A DNA stretch of 64,000 nt from Gemmatimonadaceae bacterium (GTDB lineage Bacteria; Gemmatimonadota; Gemmatimonadetes; Gemmatimonadales; Gemmatimonadaceae): positions 1-64,000 of the forward strand of contig JAUSJA010000014.1 of assembly GCA_030647905.1 (NCBI GenBank), in the 5' to 3' direction. This document shows positions 45,193-64,000 of this stretch, piece by piece. The position numbers and the translations under genes are program-made. The notes beneath the pieces were generated by a model, which saw only the letters and a list, made by a program, of their open reading frames with translations, searched no databases and had not been told where the DNA came from. Within the stretch, counting starts at the first letter, position 1, and each line of letters opens with the position of its first letter.

Positions 45193-45452
45193 CACGGCCG
45201 CCTGGGCGGCAGGCGTTTCCTGGTGCAGCGGATTTTGCCTCGACGGGACAGAACCAGCCAGGATCAAAGTGGACCCATGCGTTGAGAAGGACTTCGGGAT
45301 CTCATGAGAGCGCGACGGTTGGCCCTCGCGCATCACATTGACGCGCCAGCGGGCGGCGCGTTTCGGAACGCCAGTTCGAGAGCGAGCGATCCCCTCACGC
45401 GCGGTTGGCTGTTACGGGCCCTCGGCCGATATCCTTTTTTTCGCCTGCCGGA

Positions 45453-45935: not shown

Positions 45936-45937
45936 CG

Positions 45938-46390
45938 TTGCCCTACTACGGGTGGCGCCTCACAGCGTCAAAGCCAAGGCCGGGCTATCCCAGTGAGCTC
46001 AAGCACTTAGGCGATCATATCCGCAAGCGGCGGATTGATCTCGGACTCAATCGGAAGGAGTTGGCGCAAAAGCTCGGAACCAACGCTTGGACGATGAAGC
46101 ATTGGGAAGAACACCTGAAATTGCGGATAGAGATCAGGTTCTATCCCGCCATCCTCGCGTTCCTTGGCTATAACCCGTTGCAGGATCCCAAGACGCGTGG
46201 GCAAGCGATTAGACGCGAGCGGTATACGCGCGGTTGGTCGCGGCAGCAGTTGGCTAGAGCTGCCGGCGTTGATGAAGGCACGATTCAGCGGCTTGAAAAC
46301 GACCGGAAGGGTATGGCGAAAAAGCCCGCACAAGCCGTCCGCAAAGTGCTGGGTATCACAGCCGATCCTAACAAAACCGGGGGCCAATAA
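45938..46390 (+). CDS. Double-HTH (XRE-like) DNA-binding protein
   Basis: About 150 residues. The recognisable part begins LPYYGWRLTASKPRPGYP, then HLGDHIRKRRIDLGLNRKELAQKLG (HTH 1), 'FYPAILAFLGYNPLQDP', and 'IRRERYTRGWSRQQLARAAGVDEGTIQRLEND' (HTH 2). This two-HTH arrangement is a common small regulator family in soil bacteria, often near mobile DNA. No ATG is available; TTG 45938 is the best start, and the frame upstream is antisense of comM. The 5' end coincides with the comM break, so the N-terminus may itself be truncated. Confidence 0.65.
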   Translation: MPYYGWRLTASKPRPGYPSELKHLGDHIRKRRIDLGLNRKELAQKLGTNAWTMKHWEEHLKLRIEIRFYPAILAFLGYNPLQDPKTRGQAIRRERYTRGWSRQQLARAAGVDEGTIQRLENDRKGMAKKPAQAVRKVLGITADPNKTGGQ

Positions 46391-46581: not shown

Positions 46582-46661
46582 CGGGAGTGTGTCACTCACA
46601 GACGGACTAGCGCACCTGAATGGGGTTCAGGGGGCCGCGGGTTCAAATCCCGCCGTCCCGA
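46582..46661 (+). pseudogene. Degenerate tRNA-Pro(GGG)
   Basis: From about 46600 to 46661 the sequence folds as a tRNA: D-stem 3' strand GCGC, anticodon stem CCTGA/TCAGG with loop ATGGGGT (anticodon GGG, Pro), five-base variable loop, T-stem GCGGG/CCCGC with loop TTCAAAT, acceptor 3' strand CGTCCCG and discriminator A. The 5' part does not fit: CGGGA (46582) can pair with the acceptor but the next two positions mismatch, the D-stem partner is missing, and the spacing is about five bases too long. It is therefore a damaged tRNA or the 3' scar of an integration event. Confidence 0.7.
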
Positions 46662-46696
46662 TATTGTAAGTAGTTGTTATTAGTAGAGATATGATG

Positions 46697-48369: not shown

Positions 48370-49703
48370 TCCGCGCACTCCATGCGAAGGAAATACTTGA
48401 AGGTGTGGAGACCGACCGCACCGGCGCCCATTGAGGGTTTGTTGATCTTCTTCTTGATTTGCTCGACATCCGCCAAGGGCGCGCTGTACTGAACGGACAC
48501 ATTCTTCTTCGCCTGGCGAATGACCTTCGCTGTAAAGGCTGCGTTCGGCTTCGCGGTTATCGAGCGCAGATCGACAACCGTCAGCTTGTCCACCATGGTC
48601 CGCTCCGCGACATCCGGAGCCGGTTCGCTCGGATACATATTGTTCAGGAAGGTCAGCACGGGCCGCGCGGTAGCCATCATCTCAAGGCGGGTGCGGAGAT
48701 AGGCTTCCGATTCTTGGTTCAGACCCCGCTTCGTCGTCGTCCAGGGCAGAGAGGCTGGGTTCTCCGAGAAGAAAAACGCGATCCCGACGAATCCGCGGTA
48801 CTTGCTAACGAACTGCGGGCCGTTGAGGCCCCACCCGGTTGTCTCCGTCTTGTCGGCATGAACAACAACTCGGCCATTACAGAGGACGTACCAACCAGCG
48901 CGATCGATATTCCACTCCCCGGCCTTTCTTCCGGCCAACCCCGCAAAGAGTTCAACCTTCACGTCACCGAAGGTGAGTTCGCGAAAAGCCGGTTCCAGAT
49001 CTGCGGAGCTGCCAAGCGGAAGGGGCTTCGCGGCCACCGGCTTGTCGTTAAGGGTGATGTGTAGGAATCGTCCCAGGAACAGCGTGTAGGTGCTGGAAAG
49101 CCCCTCGAAGAGGCGCCTCATCAGGACGGGATCCTTGATGCGCAGTAGCACCTCGGGCGTGAGCTTACGGATGGTTATGGTCGTTCCCGCCTGCGCCTTT
49201 GATTTCGCCTTCGGAGCGACTTCGAAGGGAATCATCCAGCTGTCTTCCCCAGCCCACTTATTCACGTCGAGTCTCATCAGGAATCCATCATTTTCGGTGT
49301 GGGATTGGATCGTGATGTCTCGCCCGATCTTGAAGATTGCGCGTTTCAGCCCGATGCCGTAGACGCCAAGGGCGCTCTCAATCTCTGAGTCGACCCTGCC
49401 AATCCTAAACACTTCAGTTTCCGCCCTGTCAACGGCGATGCCACCGCATCGGTCTGCGATGACAATTTCGTTCGCGTTGACAGTTATCTTGATCGGGGGC
49501 GCCGCCGGAGCACTCGCGGGAAGTCCGCCGCCGTCAATGGCACCTCGGAGCAAGGCAGGTGACACGTCGATATTCCGAGTTCTGATGAACGCATCGATCG
49601 AGTTATCCACGAGGTCGAGAATCGCGTCTTCGAGGGTCAGATCCCGAGTCAGGTTATCGATGAAGAAGCGCTTCGTCGGTGTCGCATCGGCTTGAAGAGT
49701 CAT
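48366..49703 (-). CDS. GHKL-fold (Hsp90/MutL-like) ATPase
   Basis: 445 residues from ATG 49703 (ATGA overlap with the methyltransferase stop). The Bergerat ATP site is complete: N-box TLEDAILDLVDNSIDAFI, G1 VIADRCGGIAV and G2 'GVYGIGLKRAIFKIG'. This is the HATPase_c_3 type found in MutL, Hsp90 and MORC proteins. A transducer-like domain (about 190-320) follows. The C-terminal third lacks recognisable catalytic motifs. GHKL ATPases of this type have been described in restriction-modification-like operons, and the adjoining DNA methyltransferase gene supports that context. Confidence 0.85.
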   Translation of the reverse strand: MTLQADATPTKRFFIDNLTRDLTLEDAILDLVDNSIDAFIRTRNIDVSPALLRGAIDGGGLPASAPAAPPIKITVNANEIVIADRCGGIAVDRAETEVFRIGRVDSEIESALGVYGIGLKRAIFKIGRDITIQSHTENDGFLMRLDVNKWAGEDSWMIPFEVAPKAKSKAQAGTTITIRKLTPEVLLRIKDPVLMRRLFEGLSSTYTLFLGRFLHITLNDKPVAAKPLPLGSSADLEPAFRELTFGDVKVELFAGLAGRKAGEWNIDRAGWYVLCNGRVVVHADKTETTGWGLNGPQFVSKYRGFVGIAFFFSENPASLPWTTTKRGLNQESEAYLRTRLEMMATARPVLTFLNNMYPSEPAPDVAERTMVDKLTVVDLRSITAKPNAAFTAKVIRQAKKNVSVQYSAPLADVEQIKKKINKPSMGAGAVGLHTFKYFLRMECAE

Positions 49704-50512
49704 TTCTTTTCCCGGGTAGAGGCCTTGAGGCTGTCTAGGCGCCTTTCGATGACGCGACAATTGTCCTTCACAGCGTCGCAGGCCGCAAATCGCATCCCGT
49801 GTGTCACGGCCGAAACAAGAGCACTTCCACTTCCTGCGAACGGATCGACTGCAAGGCCACCCTTCGTGCCGCTGATGTGGAACACGCGATCAGTGACACT
49901 CAGCGGAAGCTGATTCTGCTTTCGCAACTTGGTGCTCGCATGGCGAACCGGGCTAACGTCGTCCCAAAAATCGCTGAGGTTGATGCCCTTCTTCTCGATG
50001 ATCGTTCGATAGCCCCCGTAGTCTTTGACGGTCTTCTTGCAGTAGCGGCAAACAACGGGCTTGACCTTCGGCCGTCGGAAGTTCTTCGGGGGTCCTTTCG
50101 TGAAGTACAGGAGCGAGTAGTGCGCTGGATATAGGCGTTTGCCTCGAACGAATCCGTTCTTCATCGAGATGGCGATCCAGTGGCGCAGAACAAGATCCCG
50201 TTCGACGATGCCGCCAAGCCGCATGGCCCAAATCGGGATGTGGTAGAGGTAGAGCGCTCCACCCGGAGCCAACACCCGGATCGCCTGTTTCAGGATGGTT
50301 TCCATCCAGGCCTGATAAACGGCCTCGGGCTGGTTATCCTGTGTGCGTTTCCTTGAGTTGTATTTTTTCCCCAGGTTAAAAGGGGGATCAAGAAAGACAA
50401 TCGATGCCGACCCGTCATCCAGCGACTCTAGGAGGTCAAGCGCGTCCCCATGGTACAGTCGGCCACGTGCACTGACCCTATCGAAGGCGCGAAATATTTT
50501 GAGCTCGGCCAA
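49700..50512 (-). CDS. DNA adenine- or cytosine-N4 methyltransferase (beta class)
   Basis: 270 residues. The catalytic motif IV is VFLDPPFNLGKK (residues about 39-50) and the SAM-binding motif I comes near the C-terminus as VDPFAGSGSALV; this order is the beta class of N6A/N4C methyltransferases. The central target-recognition part contains a CRYCKK pair that may begin a zinc-binding element. The start is TTG 50512 with GAGG five bases upstream; no in-frame ATG exists. First gene of the minus-strand cassette with the GHKL ATPase and the Rossmann protein. No separate restriction endonuclease is evident. Confidence 0.9.
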   Translation of the reverse strand: MAELKIFRAFDRVSARGRLYHGDALDLLESLDDGSASIVFLDPPFNLGKKYNSRKRTQDNQPEAVYQAWMETILKQAIRVLAPGGALYLYHIPIWAMRLGGIVERDLVLRHWIAISMKNGFVRGKRLYPAHYSLLYFTKGPPKNFRRPKVKPVVCRYCKKTVKDYGGYRTIIEKKGINLSDFWDDVSPVRHASTKLRKQNQLPLSVTDRVFHISGTKGGLAVDPFAGSGSALVSAVTHGMRFAACDAVKDNCRVIERRLDSLKASTREKK

Positions 50513-50936: not shown

Positions 50937-50987
50937 GCTGCAAAGGTCTGCAGCGGAAGCCGTTGCAGAGGTGGAAGTTGAGCTCAG

Positions 50988-51034
50988 TCGGGGCGACTGG
51001 ATTTGAACCAGCGACCTCACGCTTATCAGGCGTG
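50988..51034 (-). repeat. 3' fragment of tRNA-Ile(GAT), probable attachment-site scar
   Basis: On the minus strand CACGC-CTGATAA-GCGTG (anticodon stem-loop with GAT), AGGTC, GCTGG-TTCAAAT-CCAGT (T arm) and CGCCCCG plus discriminator A reproduce the 3' 47 nt of a tRNA-Ile exactly. Upstream of the anticodon stem no D arm or 5' acceptor strand is present; instead the stop codon of ATPase 1 lies 13 bases away. This is the classic form of an attR left by a tyrosine-recombinase element entering the anticodon loop. The element should lie on the right side. Confidence 0.85.
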
Positions 51035-51046
51035 CCGGCCCGAGAT

Positions 51047-54000
51047 CTATTCTGAGCCTACGTCCGAGGTGGAACGCCGCTTCCGTGTCGCGAGCCAGGC
51101 GTCGAGCTCGTCCCGCTCATAGAGGACTCTCCGCCCCACCTTGAAGTACGGCGGCGAGTCGCCACTCCATCGCAGCTTGGCGAGGGTCTGTGTCGCGAGG
51201 CCGAGGTAGGCGGCAGCATCTTCGGCAATGAGCATACGCTGCGTCTCGGGAGCCTCCTTGCTATGCCCTTGGCCGCCCCCCCGAGACTTGATCGGGTGCA
51301 TCTCGTCCACCGGCAACTTCGGACTTTCGAATTCATCCAGGAACCCGATGAAGTCGTCCGGCGAGAGGAATCGAACACGCTTCTCGTCAACTTCGCCGAA
51401 AAGCGTTCGCGCTTCCGAGAGGGTCCGCTCATCCGGACTCACGAGAACCGCGTAGCCGAATCCGGCGGACAAGCACTTCGAGAGATTCTGAGTCTCGTGC
51501 TCAGCGCGCGTGCTCACCGAAATTTCGCAGCCAATAGAGAGTTCTTCCCGTTCGAGATAGACGTCAATGTGACCGTGACCATCGAGCACGCGCGTTTCTA
51601 CGGTCACCTTGAACCCGCGATCTTCGGCCAATTTGCGTATTAGCGACTGAAGATATTTGTGCTGAGGTCCGCCACGGCCGGGAAGATGATCGGCGGGTGG
51701 AGTCGAGACGGGTGTCGGCGAGGTTGTCTCTGGTCGTGATGTACGCCTTTTCGCAGTTCGGACCTCCTCGACTTCTCCGCTTCGTTCTGCTGCACCCCGT
51801 GCGCGGAGATCCGATTCAACCTCCTCTTTCGGCGTTGCGAAGTTCGTGCGTGACGCGTAAAGAACTGCATTCCGGCGACTTCGGCCAACGTCTTCTGGTA
51901 CTGGCGCGAGCGGAGAGGTCCGAAGGTTGAAGTCGAAATCCGGACGCTCGATTCGAGCGATTGCTTCGCCGATGCCAAGGTTCTGCAAGTCGTTGGCTTC
52001 GAAGAACGAGAATCCGTCCGCGAGCGTTTTCGCGTCCTGATCTCCCACGCGAAAGACGATGCGGGTAAATGCGTTCCCGAGCGCTGCGCTCGCGACCTCT
52101 TCGCTCCGACTCTTGAGCTGTCGCATCTCTTGATGCGCAAGAGTGAGACCGAGTCCGTACTTGCGAGCGCCAGAGAGAATAGCCGCCAGCGACGGCGTAA
52201 TGAAGTTCTGGAACTCGTCGATATAAAGGAAGAATGGAACTCGCGCCGCCGCCGCTTCGTCCTGCCGACTCATCGCCGCCTGGGCAATCTTCGCCACGAT
52301 GAGCGACCCGAGGAGATGCGAGTTCTCCTCGCCGATCCCACCTTGGGAAAGCTTCGCGACGAGAATCTTCTTCCCATCCATGATGGCTCGCATGTCGAGG
52401 CGATCTTCCTTCTGCGCCACCATGTGCCGAATGAGCTTCGGTCGGAGGAAAGTATTGAGGCGGGTCAGGATGGGAGCGTGCGGTAACCCCTTCAGAAGCG
52501 TGAACTCTTCCTGCCAGTACGAGACGACGTGTTCGTCCTGCACGGTTTCAAGGAACCGCGCTCGGAAACTCTTGTCGATAAGAAATCGGCGGAGATCGAG
52601 AAGAGTCCCGCCGTCGGTACTTTCAAGGAATGCGAGGATCGCATTCCCGAGCACCGCCACCATCTGATCCCCGAAACTCGTAGAGAGACGTTTGAAGACC
52701 GCTACCAAGTCGGACGATAGAAGCGTCCGTTCGAGTTCCGAATGCGCCGAAAGAATGTTGAAACCGACGGGGTAGGCTTCGTCTGCAGGATCGAAGACGA
52801 CAACGTCGCCCGCACGTTCCTCCGGAATACGTGCCAGGATGTCCTCGATGAGGTCGCCGTGCGGGTCAAGAACAGCGAAGCCATTACCGGCTGCGATGTC
52901 TTGCATCGCCATCGAGAGAAGGAGTGTGCTTTTCCCCGTGCCACTCGCTCCGATGACGTAGGTGTGCCGCAGGCGTTCTTCCGTGGAGAGGGACACCTGG
53001 AGCGTCTCTCCATCGTGCTCATTCGCACCGAGAAGAAGACCGCGCCCGACAGCGGATGCCGGAGCTGATTTCGTGCGCGCGCCCTGTCGTACCAGACGCT
53101 CAGAACGCACGGAAGTGGATGGCGGGTGAAGCAGCGTCAGGATTTCGGATAGTGAGAGCAGCATGCCGCTCCGATGGGCGGCGCGGTCCAGGAGGTCTTC
53201 AACCTCAGTCTCAAAGGAGTGTTCGCCCGAGTCAGCGAGAACCAGTTCGTTTGCCTCAGAGCGCATAGCCCCGGACACCGCGTACGCCAAGTTCCGCGCC
53301 CTTTCAACGGCGCGATCTTTCTCGGGTGCAATTGCTGCCACCCGAAGAACCGCGGCGAAAAGCGGCTCCGAGAACTTGGAACGAATAAGCGGAAGAACGC
53401 TGTCCGCATCTTCGATGCTTAATGCGAAGTTCTCGAACTCCTCTCCCCACGGTTCCTTCGCCGGTTCTACAATCAGCTGAACAAGGCCAAGCTCTCCCTC
53501 CGAGAGTCGGTTCAACTCTCCAATGATTCCGATGAGAGGATCGACGTCGAACTTGTCCTCGGTCCGAAGCTCCCTGAAGACGCGTTCCTCGAGACCGAAA
53601 CCGAGAATGACGCCGTATCCTTCATCTCGCTCCCATTCTTGCCGCAGGAAGTCTCTTCTCTCTCGGGCTTTCGCTTCGGGGAAATAGGAGCGCATCGAGC
53701 CAATTATGGATGCGGAATCCAGTACGCCGCAGGCGAGCTGCACCACTACTCTATCCGGCAGCCCAAGCACTTCAAAACTCAAGGGCTCGGTGAGGCTCCG
53801 CAGAGATGCCAGCCAGCTTCTCGCCGCGCCCGGCTTCACGGCGAAGTCCGCCGAAAGAAGAAGCTCGAACTCGACAATCTCCCTCTGAATCGCGGACCGG
53901 GGCGTCTCCGTGGATTCCGCTACTCCGCTCGGCGCCGGCTCATGGATTGTCGGGCGCGGGCGATCAAACAGTCCGGGCCTGCGCGCGTCGTCAAGAATGG

Positions 54001-54133
54001 GCTTCGGCGTCCGCTCCTTTGGAAAGAGTGGCGAGTACGCCGGTTCGATCGGAACACGTTGTGACGACGTGGTCACGCCACGGGTCCGCCCCTCCCACTG
54101 ATCAAAGAGGCGGAGGATGTCGGTCGGATGCAT
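51047..54133 (-). CDS. HerA/TraG-like ATPase fused to a PD-(D/E)XK-like domain and an excisionase-type HTH
   Basis: 1028 residues, complete. Residues about 1-350 have no recognised fold. The ATPase domain has Walker A VIGASGTGKSTLLL (near 395), VLDPHGDLIEDIL, and Walker B FFLYIDEFQNF (near 638), as in DUF87/TraG/HerA-like transfer ATPases. A segment near 820-930 has the alpha-beta-beta-beta-alpha-beta order of restriction-endonuclease-like folds, with D in HIDVYL and E in GCEISVST (the usual ExK Lys is not seen). The C-terminus (about 966-1018, EDAAAYLGLATQTLAKLRW ... VLYERDELDAWLA) is a HTH_17/AlpA excisionase domain. The start lies one base after the membrane-protein stop. Confidence 0.85.
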   Translation of the reverse strand: MHPTDILRLFDQWEGRTRGVTTSSQRVPIEPAYSPLFPKERTPKPILDDARRPGLFDRPRPTIHEPAPSGVAESTETPRSAIQREIVEFELLLSADFAVKPGAARSWLASLRSLTEPLSFEVLGLPDRVVVQLACGVLDSASIIGSMRSYFPEAKARERRDFLRQEWERDEGYGVILGFGLEERVFRELRTEDKFDVDPLIGIIGELNRLSEGELGLVQLIVEPAKEPWGEEFENFALSIEDADSVLPLIRSKFSEPLFAAVLRVAAIAPEKDRAVERARNLAYAVSGAMRSEANELVLADSGEHSFETEVEDLLDRAAHRSGMLLSLSEILTLLHPPSTSVRSERLVRQGARTKSAPASAVGRGLLLGANEHDGETLQVSLSTEERLRHTYVIGASGTGKSTLLLSMAMQDIAAGNGFAVLDPHGDLIEDILARIPEERAGDVVVFDPADEAYPVGFNILSAHSELERTLLSSDLVAVFKRLSTSFGDQMVAVLGNAILAFLESTDGGTLLDLRRFLIDKSFRARFLETVQDEHVVSYWQEEFTLLKGLPHAPILTRLNTFLRPKLIRHMVAQKEDRLDMRAIMDGKKILVAKLSQGGIGEENSHLLGSLIVAKIAQAAMSRQDEAAAARVPFFLYIDEFQNFITPSLAAILSGARKYGLGLTLAHQEMRQLKSRSEEVASAALGNAFTRIVFRVGDQDAKTLADGFSFFEANDLQNLGIGEAIARIERPDFDFNLRTSPLAPVPEDVGRSRRNAVLYASRTNFATPKEEVESDLRARGAAERSGEVEEVRTAKRRTSRPETTSPTPVSTPPADHLPGRGGPQHKYLQSLIRKLAEDRGFKVTVETRVLDGHGHIDVYLEREELSIGCEISVSTRAEHETQNLSKCLSAGFGYAVLVSPDERTLSEARTLFGEVDEKRVRFLSPDDFIGFLDEFESPKLPVDEMHPIKSRGGGQGHSKEAPETQRMLIAEDAAAYLGLATQTLAKLRWSGDSPPYFKVGRRVLYERDELDAWLATRKRRSTSDVGSE

Positions 54134-54134
54134 G

Positions 54135-54791
54135 CTAGGAGAGAGCGCTTCGAGACTGTGGCTTCAGTTTCTCAGCCGGTATCTCGGGGAGCTTGTTGAT
54201 GGTGAGGATTCCCTCCACCACCTGGACCACCACGCGATGAACGGTATCCTCAAACATCAATCGAGTGTCTTCGGAGTAGTACGTGACGGGATTCACGAAC
54301 TTCTTGTAGAGAAGCCCGATGATCGGCATGACCAAGATTGTGTCTTCGATTGCACTCCACCCGTCCGCGAAGGCGCCTCGTAGAATGGCTGTCCCGACGC
54401 CGACCGCGACCAGAGCGAAGAGGATGCCCTTGAAAAACCCCATCGCCCCAATGAAGACGAGAGTGAGGAACGAGAGGCCGACGAGACTCGCGCAGCCCCA
54501 AAGGGCCGCGAAGCCAGGTATTCGCTTGACGAGCCACCACGAGAAGAAGAAGTCCTTGCCGAACGGGGCGCCGCAGATGTCGAAGCTGAGACGTCCATAC
54601 CGGGCACGCAGATACTCGCGCTTGGCGGACAGGATACCGGACTCGCTCGCAGTGATCCGCTCGATTTGCAACTCAGGCACTTCCTTGTCCCGAAGCGCCT
54701 TCTCGACGGCCGCGTAGTAATCAAGGGTCGAGGTGCTCAAGCCCTCGACGGACTGGTGCCAGTGCGAGATGACCTCCACCGACTGTGCCAT
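54135..54791 (-). CDS. Membrane protein between the two transfer-type ATPases
   Basis: 218 residues. A soluble N-terminal part of about 80 residues (helical; EKALRDKEVPELQIERI) is followed by two to three hydrophobic segments (about 92-145: FAALWGCASLVGLSFLTLVFIGAMGF and FKGILFALVAVGVGTAIL) and a polar C-terminal tail with 'RLMFEDTVHRVVVQVVEGIL'. No known family recognised. An AGGAGG site five bases before the ATG predicts strong translation. It is coupled to ATPase 1 (stop and start one base apart), so the two products may form a membrane-associated complex (inference). Confidence 0.75.
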   Translation of the reverse strand: MAQSVEVISHWHQSVEGLSTSTLDYYAAVEKALRDKEVPELQIERITASESGILSAKREYLRARYGRLSFDICGAPFGKDFFFSWWLVKRIPGFAALWGCASLVGLSFLTLVFIGAMGFFKGILFALVAVGVGTAILRGAFADGWSAIEDTILVMPIIGLLYKKFVNPVTYYSEDTRLMFEDTVHRVVVQVVEGILTINKLPEIPAEKLKPQSRSALS

Positions 54792-54844
54792 CCTGCCTCC
54801 TGTCAGGGGGAACGAACCTAGGAAGAGAGCGCGATGAGGCGGGT

Positions 54845-54908
54845 GGCGGAAGGGTGGTGGCTGAATATGGTCGTGAAGACTCTCCGTCTATGAGGAGACG
54901 GAGATAGA
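54845..54908. repeat. Direct repeat A: displaced 3' end of the ATPase 2 gene (left boundary of the TIR cassette)
   Basis: 64 bp that match 58704-58767 at 61 positions. Read on the minus strand it still encodes YLRLLIDGESSRPYSATTLP, the C-terminus of ATPase 2, although no complete gene is attached. It contains a perfect inverted repeat TCTCCGTCT-ATGAGG-AGACGGAGA (54881-54904, arms of 9, spacer of 6). It lies in the 162-bp gap between the membrane-protein gene and the AAA-TIR gene, for which no clear promoter was found. Confidence 0.9.
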
Positions 54909-54953
54909 TTCTGTAGTCTCTCGTCAAATTTCGATTCAGTCCTGACCTAGCCA

Positions 54954-57161
54954 ATGCCCAAGAACGTTCCTTCCCCACCCGAGGTCTGGGTTGAAGGTGA
55001 AAAGATCCCTGACGGCCGCCTGGAGAACATCTTCCGGGCGCCACCGGGAGCACCACCTAGCTTCGTTCGAAGCTCGTTGATAGTCGGATCTCGTGGGGTC
55101 GGAAAGACTGTGTTGCTTCGTCACCACAAACAAACCCATCGCGGGATCGCCGTGAGTGTGGCGTTGGCAGCTGAACTCGCGAGCATCACAAAGCAGACAG
55201 GCCATGGACCGCTGTCCTCCGACTATTCGGCTGCGATGGAGGGACTCATCAGTAGCAAGGCTACCTCGTTACTCGCCGTGAGCATCGCTGAGCGGGTGAC
55301 CCGCAAGGGAATAGGCGTGGCCGCCGAAATCATCAATCCTTGCCTGCCCCGAAGCCTTCGGATCACCGCTGGTCTCATCGAACCGCAGGCCCTAAGTGAT
55401 CTCAGAGAAAAACTCGCCGAGGCCCCAGTACAAGATTTCATTGGCATCGATCTGAGGCGCGCACTACCAGAGAGTGTCAGTGCGTTAGCGAGCTTGGGAC
55501 AGACGTCGCACGGACCGCTGCTTCTGTTGCTGGATAAGGCGGACATGGTGCCCACGCCCGCACTGATTCCGGTCCTTGAACTGCTAGATCAGTCCAACGA
55601 GTACGTTGTCCTCGTCGCCCTCCGCCCGGGCCATGGCGGCTACACGATGAGCCGACAGGACGACGTGACCGGCGGTGACCATTACGCGATCGCGCACCTT
55701 GGCACTAATCCGCGGTCAACTGAGTGGCGCGCGTTTGTGGCTTCAGCTGTAGAAGCCCAACTCGGCGCCGCGTATCACTCGATCCCGTCCGAAGTGCGTG
55801 ATGAAGTCATCACCCTCTCGAGAGACTCTGTTCGCAACGCACTTGAGATCTTTGTCCGGTACCTCAGTGTTTCGCATGATGAGGCGAAAGAACAGCTTGT
55901 TGCCGCGCTGGACGACTACCGTGAGAATACGCTGCATGCTGCACAAAGCACACTTCAGCGGTTTCATCCAAGTTTTCGCGGAATGATTCGGCAGTTGCGT
56001 GAGGAAGCACTGGTACGACCCGGCCGAATCGACGGCCCGGTTTACCTTAGAGTAAACAGTCAGGCACCGGGCGATCTCTTCGGAACGCCCAGCGCCTTCA
56101 ACAGTTTTGTAGAGATGGCGCTTAGGACTGGAGCCATTGCCATGCCTGAAGGGGCCAGATGGATGCCCGGTGTCACCCCTTCACTAATTGAAATACCACC
56201 GATACTCACTTGGGAAAAGGGCGATCCACCTTGGAGTTCGCTTCAGCCCGCGCCGATCGTTCTAGTCCATACCGAGGCTCGGGCGCTAAGTGCAGGTGGC
56301 GGAGCAGTGAAGCCGCCTCACATCTTCGTGGCCTATCGCTTTCGCATCAACGAGAGCGTGCAGTTCCGCCGAGAATTGGCGAGCGCGATGGAACATCATC
56401 GAACACTCTCCCGAGTTGTACTCGAAGACGGCAGAGTACCGCACGGCGATCCCTGGGCACAGTCGGTCCGCGATCGCATCCGCCGCTCAAAGCTGGTAGT
56501 GGGTGATGTTACGGGCGTAACCTGCGAGGTCATGTTCGAGTTAGGATTTGCCTACGGCTTGGGGAAGAGTCGCATTCCCGTAGTTGCCGATCATGCTGCG
56601 TTGAAGACGATGCCCCGCTGGCTCACAGCGACCCAAACGGCGACGTTCGGCAGCGCCGATGAAATGCAGGCGTTGCTGAATAGCATCCAGGTCCAGCTTG
56701 CGGATCCCAGGCAACACAAGCCAAAGCAGCCCGTCCCGGGACTGGCAGTGTGGCTACGATCATTGGATTGGAACAAGCACGCGCTTGAGCAGTCGATAAC
56801 GGCGGCGGGCCGGGAAGGTCTTTCCATAGAATGCTTCGACACCAGCACAAGCGAAGAACGCCTAATCGAGCGCGCCGCTCAAGCAACGCTGGTTGTTGCC
56901 AGTTTTGATGGAACGCTTAACGACAGCATCGCACATTTTGTCTGCGGCGCAGTCGTAGCGATGCCCAGAGCGATGCAGCTCCAACGGCAACTTATCCTGA
57001 TTGAAGAGCATGGCGCGCAACCAGGAACATGGGTTGCCGACAGCTTGCGGAGGTGCACGGACATCGCCACGCTAATGGGGCTTGAAGATGTCCCAGCAGC
57101 TATTCGGCAGTTTGGCCAGCGATATCGCAAGTGGTCAACGTCGAAGGGAAACGAGGAATGA
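54954..57161 (+). CDS. P-loop ATPase with tandem TIR/nucleoside-deoxyribosyltransferase-like domains
   Basis: 735 residues. Walker A is SLIVGSRGVGKTVLL (near 42-56); the expected Walker B is LLLLLDKADMVP, where Lys replaces the usual catalytic Glu. A helical segment (about 270-440) resembles the arm of STAND/AAA proteins. From about 455 there is a Rossmann domain: PHIFVAYRF, WAQSVRDRIRRSKLVVGDVTG, then CEVMFELGFAYGLGK, with Glu placed as in nucleoside 2-deoxyribosyltransferases and TIR-like glycosidases. A second, weaker Rossmann unit follows (about 595-720, 'RLIERAAQATLVVASFDG'). An intact sensor-NTPase plus nucleotide- or NAD-cleaving effector is the likely plan (inference). It overlaps the next gene by four bases. 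Confidence 0.75.
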   Translation: MPKNVPSPPEVWVEGEKIPDGRLENIFRAPPGAPPSFVRSSLIVGSRGVGKTVLLRHHKQTHRGIAVSVALAAELASITKQTGHGPLSSDYSAAMEGLISSKATSLLAVSIAERVTRKGIGVAAEIINPCLPRSLRITAGLIEPQALSDLREKLAEAPVQDFIGIDLRRALPESVSALASLGQTSHGPLLLLLDKADMVPTPALIPVLELLDQSNEYVVLVALRPGHGGYTMSRQDDVTGGDHYAIAHLGTNPRSTEWRAFVASAVEAQLGAAYHSIPSEVRDEVITLSRDSVRNALEIFVRYLSVSHDEAKEQLVAALDDYRENTLHAAQSTLQRFHPSFRGMIRQLREEALVRPGRIDGPVYLRVNSQAPGDLFGTPSAFNSFVEMALRTGAIAMPEGARWMPGVTPSLIEIPPILTWEKGDPPWSSLQPAPIVLVHTEARALSAGGGAVKPPHIFVAYRFRINESVQFRRELASAMEHHRTLSRVVLEDGRVPHGDPWAQSVRDRIRRSKLVVGDVTGVTCEVMFELGFAYGLGKSRIPVVADHAALKTMPRWLTATQTATFGSADEMQALLNSIQVQLADPRQHKPKQPVPGLAVWLRSLDWNKHALEQSITAAGREGLSIECFDTSTSEERLIERAAQATLVVASFDGTLNDSIAHFVCGAVVAMPRAMQLQRQLILIEEHGAQPGTWVADSLRRCTDIATLMGLEDVPAAIRQFGQRYRKWSTSKGNEE

Positions 57162-58171
57162 TCACGTCGCTCGATTCAGGAGTCCGCGGCTTTTCACTCG
57201 CGGACGTGAGAAAGCTGGCGGCCGATGCTCGCAAGACATTCTGGATCGGGGCAGCAAGTTTCGAAGAGCGATGCTGTGGCGCAATGGCAACGATGATACG
57301 CGAGCGAGTCAGACTATCTTGCGGAGTCATTCTCGATTACCAGACGAATCTTGGCCTTGACCCCGACGGAGATCGGAATCGCCAACAGAACCTTGACCGA
57401 TTGCGCCGTGACGCGAGCGCCGTGTTCCCGGTAGAACCTTTCGAACATCCGGTTGACGCCTATTCGTTCGCGGAGTTTGCGGCGTTCTTGCGTGATGTGC
57501 TGTCACAAGAGCATGCGGATCTCACGGTAATCGACATAACATGCTTGACGAAGATTCACACGCTCGCCCTTGCAGCGGAGCTAGCCAAACTTAGCCCTGA
57601 ACAGAAATGGGTTCTCTCCTATACGCTTCCCGAGAACTACGGTGGGATCCATTCGGAGAGCGCCGAAGGGTGGCGCGACGTGATCATTGCTCCGCTCGCG
57701 CAGTCTGCACGATTATTCAATGAAGAGTATAGCAGGGGCATAATCCTGCTGGGTCATGAGGCGGATCGGCTCGTCTTTGCACTCAGTGAGCTCGAGCCGT
57801 CGGGGGGAATCATCGTTCACGTAGATACACCGCGAAGGCCGGACTGGAAGCTGAGAAGCGCGGCGGTCAACCGGCGTACGATTCGTCGCTTGAGAGGAAT
57901 GCGATTTGCGGACTGGGAGGCCGTCAGCGTTGATTCCGTAGACTATGGGCGCGTCGCATCGTTGGTCGGCGCGCAAATTGACTCCGCCAAGTCCCATGGT
58001 GCACCGGTCATCCTTTTCCCCTTTGGTCCGAAGTCTCTCATTAGTAATGTCGCCCTTCGCCTGGCTGCGGACTACGACCAAGCGTCATGGTTTGTGTACC
58101 CAGTGCCGCAGCAGTATGATGCCGGCTACACCGAAGGCATCGCTGACACTCGATGGTTCGGGATCGCGTAG
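57158..58171 (+). CDS. Unrecognised two-Rossmann-fold protein, partner of the AAA-TIR protein
   Basis: 337 residues from ATG 57158 (ATGA overlap). I recognise no family. The sequence falls into two similar halves. Half 1 has ARKTFWIGAASFEERCCG, 'RLSCGVILDYQTN' and DLTVIDITCLTKIHTLAL. Half 2 has SRGIILLGHEADR, SGGIIVHVDT and 'PVILFPFGPKSLISNVALRLA'. These alternating strand-helix blocks suggest two Rossmann-like domains, as in CARF- or SAVED-like nucleotide sensors, but the match is only architectural. No catalytic motif is evident. Close coupling to the AAA-TIR gene implies a stoichiometric partner. Confidence 0.7.
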   Translation: MITSLDSGVRGFSLADVRKLAADARKTFWIGAASFEERCCGAMATMIRERVRLSCGVILDYQTNLGLDPDGDRNRQQNLDRLRRDASAVFPVEPFEHPVDAYSFAEFAAFLRDVLSQEHADLTVIDITCLTKIHTLALAAELAKLSPEQKWVLSYTLPENYGGIHSESAEGWRDVIIAPLAQSARLFNEEYSRGIILLGHEADRLVFALSELEPSGGIIVHVDTPRRPDWKLRSAAVNRRTIRRLRGMRFADWEAVSVDSVDYGRVASLVGAQIDSAKSHGAPVILFPFGPKSLISNVALRLAADYDQASWFVYPVPQQYDAGYTEGIADTRWFGIA

Positions 58172-58693: not shown

Positions 58694-59878
58694 TCAGAAC
58701 GGCGGCGGAAGGGTGGTGGCTGAATATGGTCGTGAGGCTTCTCCGTCTATGAGGAGACGGAGATAGACGTGGTAGCGAGGAAGGCTGATGAAATCCTCCG
58801 CCGAGAAGACAGGCGCGAACTCGCGCGCCAGAAACGCTCCGTCGGCCGCTCCGACTCGAAACGAGATAATCGTGCCCGCGTTGCCGAAGACAGCGTCCCG
58901 GATGGCGGGATCGAGCTGCGAGAGGTGTTGGTTGGCGAGAACCATTCCGACACGGTACTTCCGAAGCTCAACGAGCATCGTCGCCACCGAGAGCGTGGTG
59001 AAGGTCTGAAACTCATCAAGCACGATGGCGAAATCTCTTCGCTCCGCTTCTGGAGTATCGGATCGCGCTACGGCTGAGAGAGCCAAGTGAGAAACGAGAA
59101 ACGAACCGAGGGTAGCGGCCGGTCCTTCGCCGATCCGCCCCTTGTCCAGATTGACGAGGAGAAATTTCCCAGCGTCCATGATCTGGCGCAGGTCGAGCCA
59201 CTCACCCGGTTCGGTGAGAATACGACGGAGGATCGGGTCCGTGAGGGGGGCGCCGATCTTGTTTTGAAGCGGCGCGACTACGACTGAGCGAAAACCCGGC
59301 GAGTACTTCTCGAATTCGTTCGTCCAGAACTCCTTGACCACCGGGTCCTCGATGCTCGCGATTATCCCGGACCGGAAGGTGCGATCCGCGATCAATCGCG
59401 GGATGTCTGCGAGCGACGAGTCCGGTCGTTCGAGCAGCGTGAATACCACGTTCCGCAGAAGATGCTCGAGACGCGGACCCCAGTCGTCCGACCAGATCTT
59501 CTTGAAGACCTCGACGAGCCCGGCCGCGGCGAGAGCGCGATGGCTTGGCGCGATGCCAGCGAAAGGGTTGAATCGGTAGCGAAGGGATGGATCTGCCGCA
59601 TCGAGGAGCACGATGTTCTGTCGGCCAGATTCGGGAACGCATCTCAAGGCTGCACGAACGAGATCGCCATGCGGATCGATCAGTGCGCCGCCGCGCTCCG
59701 CGAGAATGTCCTGGCACACGATGTTCTGCAGGAGCGTAGACTTGCCCGTGCCAGTCTTGCCGATGATCGCAATGTGACTCCGGCGGTCGAGCTGTCGAAT
59801 GCCAAATATCCTTTCGCTACGGCTGGTGTTAGTGCGTCCAAGATACGTGACTGCGGAGTCTCCGTTGATCGATTTCAT
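58694..59878 (-). CDS. TraG/TraD-like transfer ATPase (ATPase 2)
   Basis: 394 residues from ATG 59878. Walker A IIGKTGTGKSTLLQNIV, then ALIDPHGDLV, and Walker B AIVLDEFQTF define a VirD4/TraG-type hexameric pump or HerA-like ATPase. 'RKYRVGMVLANQHLSQLD' is the sensor segment. Unlike ATPase 1 it has no added N- or C-terminal domains. The extreme C-terminus (YLRLLIDGEASRPYSATTLP) is encoded by direct repeat B, so the reading frame seems to have been completed by the inserted cassette. The frame is open 31 codons further upstream (to 59971) without obvious function. Confidence 0.88.
   Translation of the reverse strand: MKSINGDSAVTYLGRTNTSRSERIFGIRQLDRRSHIAIIGKTGTGKSTLLQNIVCQDILAERGGALIDPHGDLVRAALRCVPESGRQNIVLLDAADPSLRYRFNPFAGIAPSHRALAAAGLVEVFKKIWSDDWGPRLEHLLRNVVFTLLERPDSSLADIPRLIADRTFRSGIIASIEDPVVKEFWTNEFEKYSPGFRSVVVAPLQNKIGAPLTDPILRRILTEPGEWLDLRQIMDAGKFLLVNLDKGRIGEGPAATLGSFLVSHLALSAVARSDTPEAERRDFAIVLDEFQTFTTLSVATMLVELRKYRVGMVLANQHLSQLDPAIRDAVFGNAGTIISFRVGAADGAFLAREFAPVFSAEDFISLPRYHVYLRLLIDGEASRPYSATTLPPPF
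58704..58767. repeat. Direct repeat B: 3' end of ATPase 2 (right boundary of the TIR cassette)
   Basis: 61 of 64 bases match 54845-54908 in the same orientation; the three differences are clustered next to the inverted repeat. The core TCTCCGTCT-ATGAGG-AGACGGAGA (58740-58763) is identical in both copies. Here the repeat is part of the intact ATPase 2 gene, which ends nine bases beyond it. Confidence 0.9.
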
Positions 59879-59972
59879 CCTCCCATTGTGATCGCCGGGC
59901 GGCCAACCTTCGCAGAGGGAACTTTCTGCACGGCTGGGGAGGCTGCCCGCGAGGAGTCGCGGAGCGAGCAAA

Positions 59973-60060: not shown

Positions 60061-60993
60061 CTAAGGCCTCGCCCGAGACAGCTCAGTCAAACCGAGTGGA
60101 TTGAACGACCGAAACGTGGCTTGATAAGGAACAATCAAACTCGTCGTGTACTGATTGAGTACAGTCGAGAACGAAGATCGCCTGAACTCACTTGCCGGCA
60201 CGCCTGCTATCGCGCGGATATGTCTGCCGAAGCTCTGCGGAGATGAATAGTCGAGCCGATAGGCGACGTCGGCGATTGAAGCCCCCGGCGAGTCCAACAA
60301 CGCTGCGGCGTAGACGAGTCTTATTTCAGCGAGGTATCGCTTCGGCGAGGGCAAACTCGCCCGAAAGAATCGAGACATGAGCGTGCTCGCGTGTGCCTGT
60401 AGTGCCACCGATGCGAGAACCTTCAGCGTCGTCACCTTCGGCGCCACCCGGACCAACGTATCGAAGAACTGTCGACTTCCCGGAGTAGGATCGCCAAGGG
60501 CTGAAAGTACCGACCCGAGAATCTCCATGGTGGTGGCGCGTGCGGCGTCGGATACCATTTCCCGCAACTTATTCCACCCATCGCGGTCGCTGAGATCGAC
60601 AAGTCGTCGAACGCCGCATGCCCCGAGGTCAAGCAATTCTTGACCAACAGTTGGGCCTTGGCCACCCAGAATCGCCACGGGTAAAACCCCCGTGCCACTC
60701 AATACGAGTTTGCCGATATCAGGAAGATTGAAGCCGTTGAGCATCCTGGGAGACAGCAGCAAGGCACGGGCCGAGGGATTCCGAACGGCTGCCAACGCAT
60801 CGTGAAGTGAATCCGTGTGGATTGTCAGGAACGAGCCGAGTGTGGCAGCATCTAGTCTGCTACGCATGGCGGGCTCGAGCATCGTTACGATCGTAGCCTT
60901 GGTTTGGCTTGGTATCTTGATAGTGTGTGCGAGAGCTTTGGGCGACTCTCTTGCAGAACGTCGTCGCCGCTTCGCGATGGGATACTCGTACAT
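60061..60993 (-). CDS. AraC-family transcriptional regulator
   Basis: 310 residues from ATG 60993, with GGGAGG five bases upstream. The N-terminus is strongly basic (KRRRRSAR), then comes a ~200-residue unknown domain in which 'SARALLLSPRMLNGFN' and 'ALLDLGACGVRRLVDLSDR' resemble the receiver-like or periplasmic-binding folds seen in some regulators. The C-terminal AraC HTH pair (about 215-280) has KRYLAEIRLVYAAALL, SIADVAYRLDYSSPQSFGRHIRA and GVPASEFRR. It presumably controls element or defence genes (inference). Bounded by its own terminator. Confidence 0.85.
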   Translation of the reverse strand: MYEYPIAKRRRRSARESPKALAHTIKIPSQTKATIVTMLEPAMRSRLDAATLGSFLTIHTDSLHDALAAVRNPSARALLLSPRMLNGFNLPDIGKLVLSGTGVLPVAILGGQGPTVGQELLDLGACGVRRLVDLSDRDGWNKLREMVSDAARATTMEILGSVLSALGDPTPGSRQFFDTLVRVAPKVTTLKVLASVALQAHASTLMSRFFRASLPSPKRYLAEIRLVYAAALLDSPGASIADVAYRLDYSSPQSFGRHIRAIAGVPASEFRRSSFSTVLNQYTTSLIVPYQATFRSFNPLGLTELSRARP

Positions 60994-61038
60994 CTTGACC
61001 TCCCGGCTCATGTAGGATTGAAACACGAGACGCCGCAC

Positions 61039-61346
61039 TCAGAACCGAGAAGTCGGCGTGAGTGCGGCGTCGCATGTGGGTGAAAGAACGGATCGGTCGC
61101 GGCTATGCCGCTACGATTCCACTCTCAATGGTAGACCCGATCAACTACTCAATGCAGGAGGGAGGTTTCTGCGTGGCGTGCACGACGCGCGCCGGATGCA
61201 AGAAACGCCGCGAGAACGGGGTTTCTTTGGTTGGAGCATATTCATGTTCGCGGCTTAGCACCCTCTTGCATTTGGTGCGATAATGAATCTCATGTTTACC
61301 CGTGAGCAGTGTATGGCAACGCCCGCATTACCGTCATTGGCACATC
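61039..61346. other. Intergenic region between the AraC gene and the NTPase; no confident gene
   Basis: 308 bp with overlapping short plus-strand frames. One (61062-61283, 73 codons) has a Cys-containing stretch GGFCVACTTRAGCKKRREN but no ribosome-binding site or known homology. The region should contain the promoter of the downstream NTPase gene; I found no clear hexamer pair. Confidence 0.4.
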
Positions 61347-64000
61347 ATGCAACCAAGTGAATTCATTCAACAAAATAAGACGCAGGTCAAGCTTGCCGGG
61401 CCTCGATACACTCCCGGCATGGATCCGAATGCTCCGAACATCGAAATCAAGTCAGTACTCCTAACCGGGAGCGCAGTTGCCTTGAATACGATTTGGGCGG
61501 AGCATATCAAAGCACTCAGAGACGGTTTGAAGAAAGCGTCCGAACATCCACCGGCTGCAGTGCGCAACACGTTCAAGAGACGGGTATACAATCTTGCTAA
61601 CCTGACGACGAAGCTTGATCAATTGATTACCGCCGATGCGGCAAATGTAGAGGTGCGAAGCGCTACCCTTCGTAAAGCAACAAAGCGCGTAGTGCGGTCG
61701 CTTTCCCATGTGTTGCAGGAGCTAGAGAAACTGCACGCGTCTGCACACGATGATAAGGCACGCCGGGACGTTGAGAACGCGATGCACTCGACGCGAGTGA
61801 TCCAAAACGCCGTGGAAGAAATCGTGCTGCTTGTGGAATCACCGGCGTGGAATGCTGTTACAAAAAAAGCAGTCCTGCTACTCGGTGAATGGGGTACCGG
61901 CAAGACGCACTTTCTGTGCGACCTCACGCTTCAACGCGACCGTCGGAAACTGCCGACTCTTTTCTATCTCGCTCAAAATCTTTCCGGTGGCATTGACCCT
62001 CTTCAGGCGATTTGCGATCAAACGCGTCTAGCACAAAATCCGCGCGCACTCTTCAAGCGGCTAGACGCACTTGGTCAACAATCGGCGAGCCGTGGTCTCC
62101 TCATTATTGATGGGATCAACGAAGGCGATCGTGCCCAGTGGAAGCGAAGCGTTCGTGCGATCACTGGGTTGTTAAAGGGATTAGACAATGTCGGCGTAAT
62201 CCTCAGTTGCCGACGTCCGTTCGACGATCAGATATTTTCTGCTCGCAGTCGTGCCGCGTTTGTTACCATAGAGCATCCGGGTTTTGAGACGGTGGAGTTT
62301 GACGCGCAGGTCGAGTATTTCGCGTACTACAGGATTCCAGCCCCGCATGTGCCGCTGTTGGCGCCAGAGTTTGCTCGACCGTTGTTCTTGAAAATGTTAT
62401 GCGAAACGGTTTACAGCCTCGCAGCGAACGGCAAACGAGCGTACTTGCGTGATCTGAGTTCCGGACAGAAGGGGATGACGCGCGTCCTGGAGGATTTCGT
62501 GAAGAAAATCGGCAGGCGCATAGAGACGGATTTCGCCTTGCCGGCGAAGGCATGTTGGGACTTGCTGAAAGGGTATCACTCGCAAGCGCACGGACTGATA
62601 ATTGGCATTGCGCCAATAATGGCCGCGTCCGTTCGCGAATACGTAACAATGCCGGAGGCTCTATCAGAGATTCAAAAGGTTACGGGATGGAATTCAAGCC
62701 GCCAATGTTCCCGACTGCTAGAGCGCCTGTTCGTTGAAGGCTTACTCCTGCGCGGAGTGAACTACGAAACAGCGGGCACCTATACGGAGGTTGTTCGCTT
62801 ACCCTACCAACGTTTCAGCGACCATCTGATATCGCGGCACCTGATGCAGGCGTACCTCAACACAAACACGCCAGGAACGATTCGTCGAAGTTTCTATTCC
62901 AATCGTCCGCTTGGAAAAATCTTCGCTCTTTCTCCTGGCGGCCATAGCTTCGCAATGCCAGGCCTCGCCGCAGCATTGATGTTGGAATTCCCGGAACGTG
63001 TCAAACGGGACGTCCCAAAAAGCGAGCGTGAACTCCTGACCTATCTTCCAGTTTCGCGAAGGCTCGTGAGACCCGTACAAAGGGCCTTTCTTGATGGCCT
63101 GGAATGGCGCTCAAGCGGTTCCTTCAGTAACGAAACCGATTACATCGTCGAATTCTTGTTACGGCGGGCAGGGGATGATGCGAAGAATCAGACACTCGAA
63201 TCATTGGTTGCGTTAGCGACCCGGCCGGGACATCCATACTCTGCAACGCGGCTTAGAGGCTACCTAGCCAAAGAAACCATGCCGGCTCGCGATCTGTTTT
63301 GGTCGGAGTACATTCGGCAAGCCTCAGACACCGCGACCATCTTCCGCCTCCTCGCCTGGCTTGATCGTACACAAAATGCTCCCATACCGCGTCGTGTGGC
63401 CCGGGATGCCATAACTCTATTGGCGCTGTTTCTTACAACAACGCGTCGAGCATTACGTGATCAAGTGACGAAAGCGCTGGTCCAGCTCGGGAGCCGGAAT
63501 CCCGCCGCTCTCTTCGCGGCTACAATTCAAAACCTCGGGTTTAACGACCCCTATGTGCCTGAGCGTCTGCTTGCCGCGAGTTATGGTGTGGCGATGCGCT
63601 ATTGGGCGGACCCTAACGGGGCTTCGGTCCGCAAACAATTACCGCGTCTGGCCAAGCAACTAACGGAGAAGATGTTCGTTCCACCAGCGCCTAACAGCAC
63701 GTGGCATGTTTTGATGCAAGACTTTGCGCTCGGCGTTGTTGAACTTGGGCAACGGATTCAACCGAAATGCATTCCCTCGCGCTCCAAACGATACGTGAAG
63801 AGCCCACTCACCCATATTCCCTCGCCGTTCCCAGAGGCCTCAGCGATCACAGACAATGAAATTGGGGACGTGGCAGATGCGCTACATATGGACTTCGATA
63901 ACTACACTCTCGGTCACCTAATCCCGGAACGCCGAAACTACGATTCCAACAATGCGGAGTATCAGACGGTCCGGCGTCAGGTTTTGCGGCGGATGGCAAA
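61347..64000 (+). CDS. Large STAND/NACHT-like NTPase, 3' end beyond the window
   Basis: The frame from ATG 61347 is open to the right edge (884 codons) without a stop. The start MQPSEFIQQNKTQVKLAGPRYTPG has the RYTP motif seen at the N-termini of nSTAND3-type and AVAST-like NTPases. Walker A is LLLGEWGTGKTHFL (near 184) and Walker B is GLLIIDGINEGD (near 251), the NACHT-like form. 'VGVILSCRRPF' is the sensor strand. Beyond about residue 350 come winged-helix-like and helical-repeat segments that usually bind the trigger (a phage protein). No nuclease or SIR2 domain appears at the N-terminus; an effector may lie at the unseen C-terminus or in a neighbouring gene. Ribosome-binding site weak. 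Confidence 0.75.
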   Translation, partial: MQPSEFIQQNKTQVKLAGPRYTPGMDPNAPNIEIKSVLLTGSAVALNTIWAEHIKALRDGLKKASEHPPAAVRNTFKRRVYNLANLTTKLDQLITADAANVEVRSATLRKATKRVVRSLSHVLQELEKLHASAHDDKARRDVENAMHSTRVIQNAVEEIVLLVESPAWNAVTKKAVLLLGEWGTGKTHFLCDLTLQRDRRKLPTLFYLAQNLSGGIDPLQAICDQTRLAQNPRALFKRLDALGQQSASRGLLIIDGINEGDRAQWKRSVRAITGLLKGLDNVGVILSCRRPFDDQIFSARSRAAFVTIEHPGFETVEFDAQVEYFAYYRIPAPHVPLLAPEFARPLFLKMLCETVYSLAANGKRAYLRDLSSGQKGMTRVLEDFVKKIGRRIETDFALPAKACWDLLKGYHSQAHGLIIGIAPIMAASVREYVTMPEALSEIQKVTGWNSSRQCSRLLERLFVEGLLLRGVNYETAGTYTEVVRLPYQRFSDHLISRHLMQAYLNTNTPGTIRRSFYSNRPLGKIFALSPGGHSFAMPGLAAALMLEFPERVKRDVPKSERELLTYLPVSRRLVRPVQRAFLDGLEWRSSGSFSNETDYIVEFLLRRAGDDAKNQTLESLVALATRPGHPYSATRLRGYLAKETMPARDLFWSEYIRQASDTATIFRLLAWLDRTQNAPIPRRVARDAITLLALFLTTTRRALRDQVTKALVQLGSRNPAALFAATIQNLGFNDPYVPERLLAASYGVAMRYWADPNGASVRKQLPRLAKQLTEKMFVPPAPNSTWHVLMQDFALGVVELGQRIQPKCIPSRSKRYVKSPLTHIPSPFPEASAITDNEIGDVADALHMDFDNYTLGHLIPERRNYDSNNAEYQTVRRQVLRRMA

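What the first reader, a model, noticed from the sequence alone, without database searches (positions are those of the whole stretch)
51047..54133. Transfer ATPase fused to a nuclease-like domain and an excisionase-type HTH
HerA/TraG-type ATPase, PD-(D/E)XK-like segment and a HTH_17/AlpA domain occur in one uninterrupted frame, ending 13 bp from the tRNA-Ile attachment scar. Coupling of DNA pump, nuclease and site-binding domain in one chain would be an unusual mobilisation or defence machine.
Basis: partly seen in the sequence, partly recalled or inferred. Interest (0 to 1): 0.7.

Follow-up and report, generated by a model that had tools for sequence, protein, structure and literature searches.

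The report
DNA pump–nuclease with fused HTH
A single bacterial protein really does join a DNA-pumping motor, a DNA-cutting domain and a DNA-binding domain of the excisionase type; it is a conserved, once-evolved fusion carried with two partner genes on mobile defence islands inserted at proline tRNA genes, and its function has not been tested.

Summary
Window 51047-54133(-) is one 1028-aa frame: an N-terminal region, a VirD4/HerA-type ATPase (~365-740), a PD-(D/E)XK-fold nuclease domain (~822-925) and a C-terminal HTH_17 (971-1017). It is no artefact. In the window's taxonomic family (179 genomes, 35 genera) all eight relatives that reach past the nuclease domain carry the HTH fused, one cut by its contig end inside the HTH. 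The HTH is under purifying selection, and the fused proteins form one clade (100/100), so the fusion arose once. In another family of the class and several other phyla the same protein lacks the HTH and ends in a different tail. The protein is encoded with a small membrane protein (1 nt upstream) and usually a second ATPase. Six of six family loci with enough flank contain a tRNA-Pro gene or tRNA-Pro-derived remnant; one island is delimited (32.6 kb, direct repeats, tyrosine integrase, many defence genes). The 'tRNA-Ile scar' is an Ile/Pro chimera. Best explanation: a membrane-tethered translocase-nuclease of the 'HerA/FtsK capture' kind carried as an island module, with an excisionase-derived HTH placing or regulating it. 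Defence against mobilisation is undecided. New variant of a known kind.

The parts
51047..54133 (-). FUS: 1028-aa translocase-nuclease-HTH fusion protein
51914..53041 (-). VirD4/TrwB/HerA-type ATPase domain (residues ~365-740), Walker A at 395, DE at 639-640
51359..51670 (-). PD-(D/E)XK-fold nuclease domain (residues ~822-925); H825, E846, D857, E870, E880, N883 invariant, K886 nearly so
51068..51241 (-). HTH_17 / AlpA-excisionase-type DNA-binding domain (residues ~965-1022), replacing the conserved tail of unfused relatives
54135..54791 (-). MEM: 218-aa membrane protein, stop codon 1 nt before the FUS start; same spacing in G056, G328, G343, G405
58694..59971 (-). ATP2: ATPase-only paralogue (37% identical to the FUS ATPase core), directly upstream of MEM in G056, G328 and G310
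54843..54911 (-). Duplicated 3' tail of ATP2 just upstream of MEM, marking where a cassette was inserted (coordinates approximate)
54954..58171 (+). Two-gene cassette (AAA ATPase with TIR/nucleoside-transferase-like end; CARF-like protein) lying between ATP2 and MEM, absent there in relatives
60061..61038 (-). AraC-type (HTH_18) regulator found upstream of ATP2 in five family loci, separated from it by a terminator-like hairpin
50986..51035 (-). Chimeric tRNA 3' remnant (attachment scar): anticodon arm of tRNA-Ile(GAT), T-arm and acceptor of tRNA-Pro(CGG)
46608..46662 (+). Second tRNA 3' remnant, tRNA-Pro(GGG), close to where GC drops from ~64% to ~56%
61302..63998 (+). Avs2-like NACHT/STAND protein (runs past the window end), neighbouring defence gene

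Best explanation
FUS is the effector of a conserved small operon (ATP2 - MEM - FUS) carried on mobile islands. SHOWN by sequence and structure prediction: one chain joins a VirD4/HerA-type DNA translocase, a PD-(D/E)XK-fold domain with a conserved acidic set, and an excisionase-type HTH; a small membrane protein is co-encoded 1 nt upstream, and a second ATPase is usually nearby; the HTH fusion arose once and is under purifying selection; the islands sit at tRNA-Pro genes and carry defence genes. INFERRED mechanism: MEM tethers a FUS or FUS/ATP2 ring at the membrane; the ring threads double-stranded DNA past the nuclease domain, which cuts it. The HTH, derived from an excisionase/RDF of a tyrosine-integrase island, binds a short site and either loads or aims the pump (compare the FtsK gamma domain, from general knowledge) or represses the operon. 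I consider capture and cutting of incoming DNA (a 'HerA/FtsK capture'-like defence module) somewhat more likely than a role in moving the island.
For: Domain and fold evidence. HTH fused in 8 of 8 relatives that reach past the nuclease domain, one of them cut by its contig end within the HTH; single origin 100/100. HTH mean identity 0.78 and dN 0.16, beside linkers with identity 0.41 and 0.30 and dN 0.72 and 0.94; pS ~0.6 throughout. MEM lies directly upstream of FUS in nearly every homologue across several phyla where the contig allows; ATP2 near it in f1, f7 and some Bacteroidota. FUS was not found at 80% coverage or more on 72,556 plasmid or 50,697 phage records. The delimited G056 island (32.6 kb between two tRNA-Pro 3' repeats, tyrosine integrase beside one) holds DpdE/DrmD-, DrmMI-, GajB- and PDC-type genes and showed no relaxase or T4SS gene among the proteins scanned. 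Beside the window operon lie Avs2-like, Eco57I-methylase and AAA_15 genes. The ATPase core resembles MADS mad8 and DndH. Pump + REase + wHTH as an anti-invader theme: PMC10853773, PMC12839542.
Against: No activity, no DNA-binding site and no phenotype is known. The canonical ExK lysine is absent (S872); a lysine on the next helix (K886) is nearly invariant but its role is unproven. No modification enzyme is conserved with the operon, so self/non-self discrimination is unexplained. Site-specific recombinase genes lie within a few kb of FUS in about ten other loci, which could mean a mobility role. Defence neighbours may only reflect a shared island.
Confidence: 0.5

Rival explanations
1. Island mobilisation machine. 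FUS/ATP2/MEM move the excised island as double-stranded DNA, in the manner of the Streptomyces AICE protein TraB (FtsK-like pump with a C-terminal DNA-reading domain; from general knowledge). The excisionase-derived HTH couples the pump to the island's attachment or clt-like site, and the nuclease processes DNA.
For: All six family loci with flank lie at tRNA-Pro genes or remnants; a tyrosine integrase lies in the G056 island. Serine recombinase genes or fragments lie near unfused FUS in L006, L007, L009, L012, L017, L018, L019, L050, G262 and G310, and Tyr integrases in L013, L018 and L020. HTH resembles the RDF RdfS (E 6.6e-7) and excisionase families.
Against: No relaxase or T4SS gene seen among the scanned proteins of the delimited island; recombinase type varies between phyla; no tandem repeat cluster resembling clt near the operon; a nuclease in the transfer pump would be odd.
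Confidence: 0.25
2. The HTH is only an autoregulatory domain. It binds the operon's promoter and represses it, and has no part in DNA pumping.
For: Excisionase-type wHTHs such as RdfS also regulate transcription, including their own promoter (PMC11963761); the region upstream of the AraC-type gene is partly conserved among f1 loci.
Against: A fused DNA-binding domain on a large pump is an unusual repressor; a separate AraC-type regulator is already present.
Confidence: 0.2
3. The fusion is a frameshift, stop-loss or assembly accident created at the island border, without function.
For: The ORF ends 11 nt before a tRNA scar, where recombination could create a chimera.
Against: Fusion present in seven further genomes of other genera, single origin, purifying selection on the HTH.
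Confidence: 0.01

Closest known systems
'HerA/FtsK capture' anti-invader systems (incl. DndH, Orc/CDC6-linked operons, BRC; PMC10853773, PMC12839542)
   Same: HerA/FtsK-superfamily translocase combined with a REase-fold nuclease and wHTH, in mobile neighbourhoods that may include a Xis-type HTH and a Y-recombinase.
   Different: FUS has a VirD4/TrwB-like ATPase, a membrane partner (MEM), a second ATPase, no Dnd, Orc/CDC6 or PglZ partner conserved, and a single chain ending in HTH_17. It is not described in the passages read.
Type IV coupling proteins (VirD4/TrwB/TraG)
   Same: ATPase fold and Pfam domains.
   Different: No clear TM segment in FUS, extra nuclease and HTH domains, no relaxase/T4SS seen in the delimited island.
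MADS (MAD8 ATPase, MAD1 HTH)
   Same: ATPase core matches mad8 (E 1e-18); HTH weakly matches MAD1 (21.8 bits, cut-off 80).
   Different: Other mad genes are not conserved with FUS; mad1 and mad8 are separate models of separate proteins.
AlpA/Xis-type recombination directionality factors (RdfS, HTH_17)
   Same: The C-terminal domain belongs to HTH_17; closest solved sequence RdfS.
   Different: Fused to a pump-nuclease instead of a ~70-100 aa separate protein.
HerA-NurA and HerA-nuclease pairs
   Same: Pump plus nuclease logic; HerA-NurA among the structure hits.
   Different: Nuclease fused in cis and of PD-(D/E)XK type.

Membership tests
VirD4/TrwB type IV coupling protein | TrwB/TraG-type ATPase domain with Walker A and B | tested here: met
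VirD4/TrwB type IV coupling protein | N-terminal transmembrane segment | tested here: inconclusive
   Hydropathy scan gives only one marginal segment in FUS (129-147, 1.64), lying in a predicted folded region; clear hydrophobic segments are in the separate MEM protein
VirD4/TrwB type IV coupling protein | Encoded with relaxase and/or T4SS channel genes | tested here: not met
   No relaxase or T4SS match among the scanned proteins of the delimited 32.6-kb G056 island; not every ORF was scanned
PD-(D/E)XK nuclease superfamily | a-b-b-b-a-b core fold | tested here: met
PD-(D/E)XK nuclease superfamily | D...ExK active-site signature | tested here: inconclusive
   D857 and E870 invariant, but S at the K position; K886 on the next helix nearly invariant
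HTH_17 / excisionase (AlpA/RDF) domain | HTH_17 profile above curated cut-off | tested here: met
   38.9 bits against 27
HTH_17 / excisionase (AlpA/RDF) domain | Binds attachment site and directs excision | not testable with these tools
   needs binding and excision assays
HerA/FtsK capture system | HerA/FtsK-superfamily ATPase with REase and HTH in a mobile or defence neighbourhood | tested here: met
   theme
HerA/FtsK capture system | Membership in the described clades 1-6 or linkage to DndFGH, Orc/CDC6 or D5 helicase | tested here: inconclusive
   Conserved partners are MEM, ATP2 and recombinases only; no tree with the published clades was made; a weak ORC-CDC6-like match in the inserted, non-conserved cassette
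MADS | Operon mad1-mad8 | tested here: not met
   Only mad8-like and weakly mad1-like domains; no other mad gene conserved with FUS

The most novel reading that the evidence does not exclude
FUS is a site-reading DNA pump of tRNA-integrated islands: an excisionase domain was captured onto a VirD4/HerA-type translocase-nuclease so that one protein both recognises the island's attachment region and pumps or processes its double-stranded DNA, giving relaxase-free mobilisation (or element-versus-element exclusion at the tRNA site).
Probability: 0.15. Interest if true: 0.75.

Novelty: new variant of a known kind. Interest (0 to 1): 0.5.

Why it matters
It adds an apparently undescribed operon (ATP2-MEM-FUS) to the growing set of DNA-pump-plus-nuclease systems on mobile defence islands. 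It also gives a clean natural experiment: the same pump-nuclease with and without an excisionase-type HTH, acquired once. That makes the question of how such pumps find their DNA target directly testable by domain deletion and swap.

Tried and rejected
Artefact or frameshift fusion: rejected by conservation. Simple tRNA-Ile scar: rejected; no match to the chimeric 45-mer with up to 3 mismatches in 147 other family genomes, and the halves match two different tRNAs of the same genome. Plasmid or phage origin: no full-length match. Pfam and PDB-sequence annotation of the nuclease domain: no match, fold only. clt-like tandem repeats near the operon: none. Modelling of the HTH by AlphaFold2 failed, because the alignment rows allowed in that tool lack it and were misaligned there; the HTH rests on sequence. 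ARAGORN does not call the tRNA remnants; Rfam calls the one at 50988-51067 marginally, which includes coding sequence. Literature on TraB/clt was not in the library.

Full report
1. The observation. The ORF at 51047-54133(-) is a single frame of 1028 aa. Pfam finds TrwB_AAD_bind, TraG-D_C and T4SS-DNA_transf over the ATPase and HTH_17 at 971-1017. The closest solved sequence for the HTH is the recombination directionality factor RdfS, and PHROGs links it to 'excisionase and transcriptional regulator'. AlphaFold2 on the C-terminal alignment gives a confident a-b-b-b-a-b core that matches PD-(D/E)XK nucleases: AF1548 Z 11.1, EndoMS Z 10.6, Can2 Z 10.5, then FokI, BamHI, McrBC and Hjc. The full model matches VirB4, HerA and TrwB. 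In an alignment of 25 relatives H825, E846, D857, E870, E880 and N883 are invariant and K886 nearly so; the K of the usual ExK motif is replaced (S872), so catalysis is likely but not certain.

2. Is the fusion real? Yes. In the window's family (179 genomes, 35 genera) eight relatives, the window included, reach past the nuclease domain: G000, G056, G328, G343, G030, G052, G443, and G405, which its contig end cuts within the HTH. All carry the HTH. G434 is a broken copy and G043 a distant relative; neither match reaches the HTH. In a maximum-likelihood tree the six fused proteins long enough to include form one group (100/100; one change; 0 of 500 shuffles as low). Within the family the HTH is as conserved as the nuclease domain (mean identity 0.78 and 0.76; dN 0.16 and 0.17), while the linkers on either side of the nuclease domain are at 0.41 and 0.30 (dN 0.72 and 0.94), with pS ~0.6 in all. 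Relatives in family f7 of the same class (G262, G310) and in Bacteroidota, Ignavibacteriota, Planctomycetota, Verrucomicrobiota and Eisenbacteria end instead in another tail, in most of them a 'KGYRVKV.Y...SLRR'-type one, and have no HTH. No HTH_17 gene of this kind was found near them except in the ignavibacterial locus L013, where a separate HTH_17 gene sits beside a tyrosine integrase about 1.7 kb upstream of MEM-FUS. Among stand-alone relatives of the HTH in the window's class, three of thirteen have a tyrosine integrase within 1.5 kb (L094, L165, L166). Together these make an excisionase origin of the fused domain likely (inference).

3. The operon. MEM (54135-54791) ends 1 nt before the FUS start; the spacing is the same in G056, G328, G343 and G405. 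A MEM relative lies directly upstream of FUS in nearly every homologue whose contig reaches that far, across several phyla. An ATPase-only paralogue, ATP2, lies upstream of MEM: compactly in G056, G328 and G310, near FUS in G030, G405, G343 (truncated), L004, L012 and L016, and ~18 kb away in G262. In this family an AraC-type gene comes next, separated from ATP2 by a terminator-like hairpin. In the window a two-gene cassette (54954-58171) lies between ATP2 and MEM, and the ATP2 tail is duplicated beside MEM, so this site accepts cargo; G405 and G030 have other genes there. Apart from FUS/ATP2, MEM and recombinases, no gene family is widely shared among the loci.

4. The islands. The six family loci with enough flank (G000, G056, G030, G052, G328, G343) each have a tRNA-Pro gene or a tRNA-Pro-derived 3' remnant within about 7 kb of FUS. 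In G056 two direct repeats of the tRNA-Pro(CGG) 3' half, 32.6 kb apart, bound an island with a tyrosine integrase beside one repeat; in G343 a remnant lies beside a truncated ATP2; in G052 FUS ends 113 bp from an intact tRNA-Pro(GGG). In the window the remnant next to FUS joins the anticodon arm of tRNA-Ile(GAT) to the T-arm and acceptor of tRNA-Pro(CGG), with the shared AGGTC as the likely crossover; a second remnant, tRNA-Pro(GGG), is at 46608-46662, near where GC falls. I read the chimera as recombination between two att remnants (inference). Orientation of FUS to the tRNA differs between loci, so FUS is not always at the same island end. The G056 island carries DpdE/DrmD-like, DrmMI-like, GajB-like and PDC-S11/S45 genes and a serine recombinase, with no relaxase or T4SS gene among the proteins scanned. 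Beside the window operon lie Avs2-like, Eco57I-methylase and AAA_15 genes. Outside the family, serine recombinase genes or fragments lie within a few kb of FUS in about ten loci, and tyrosine integrases in three.

5. Mechanism. Shown: architecture, conservation, operon, island context. Inferred: MEM anchors a FUS/ATP2 ring; the ring pumps double-stranded DNA past the nuclease; the HTH recruits or regulates. Work on 'HerA/FtsK capture' systems describes the same logic of translocase, REase and wHTH as anti-invader machines with mobile-element features, including operons with a Xis-type HTH and a Y-recombinase (PMC10853773; PMC12839542). Excisionase-type wHTHs can both direct excision and regulate transcription (PMC11963761). 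I favour capture and cutting of incoming DNA over island mobilisation, mainly because no relaxase or T4SS was seen in the delimited island and the neighbours are defence genes. That evidence is indirect, so I give it about even odds overall.

6. Verdict. A real, conserved, once-evolved fusion in a previously undescribed (as far as the libraries searched show) operon; a new variant of a known kind, not a categorically new machine.

Noticed in passing
window 50986-51035 and G000:C25:35423-53461 (L150, L151): The window's tRNA scar is an Ile/Pro chimera; contig C25 has an intact tRNA-Pro(CGG) followed by three further 3'-half remnants at 36370, 48770 and 53429, i.e. a tandem array of integration scars.
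   Followed up: partly
L004:7475-8138, L013:4511-5213, L050:2409-3138, L177:4682-5633 (G056): A small protein pair near FUS loci in several phyla: a ~160-aa RuvX-like protein (weak Pfam match, E 0.003 in L004), with a short partner or an XRE-type HTH protein beside it.
   Followed up: partly
L018:10949-12268, L019:3192-4550: In Verrucomicrobiota, FUS is followed by a serine-recombinase-like protein that starts at the DNA-binding 'Recombinase' domain; in L019 Pfam finds no catalytic Resolvase domain and the reading frame overlaps the FUS end.
   Followed up: partly
window 54954-58171: Two-gene cassette (AAA ATPase with TIR/nucleoside-transferase-like C-terminus, CARF-like protein) inserted with duplication of the ATP2 tail; possibly a separate defence pair.
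   Followed up: partly
window 45338-46390: XRE-type HTH protein at the island edge, related to the C-terminal HTH of a Bacteroidota large serine recombinase (L012).
   Followed up: no
window 47425-50512: Three-gene cluster on the other side of the scar: Methyltransf_35 protein, HATPase_c_3 (MzaB-like) and N6/N4 DNA methylase.
   Followed up: no
G058:C17:132874-137477 (L112, L090): A decayed copy: MEM matched in two separate pieces and only the first 59 residues of FUS matched, pointing to insertions or loss.
   Followed up: no
L023-L082: ATPase relatives of FUS (matches ending before the nuclease domain) are abundant in Patescibacteria.
   Followed up: no
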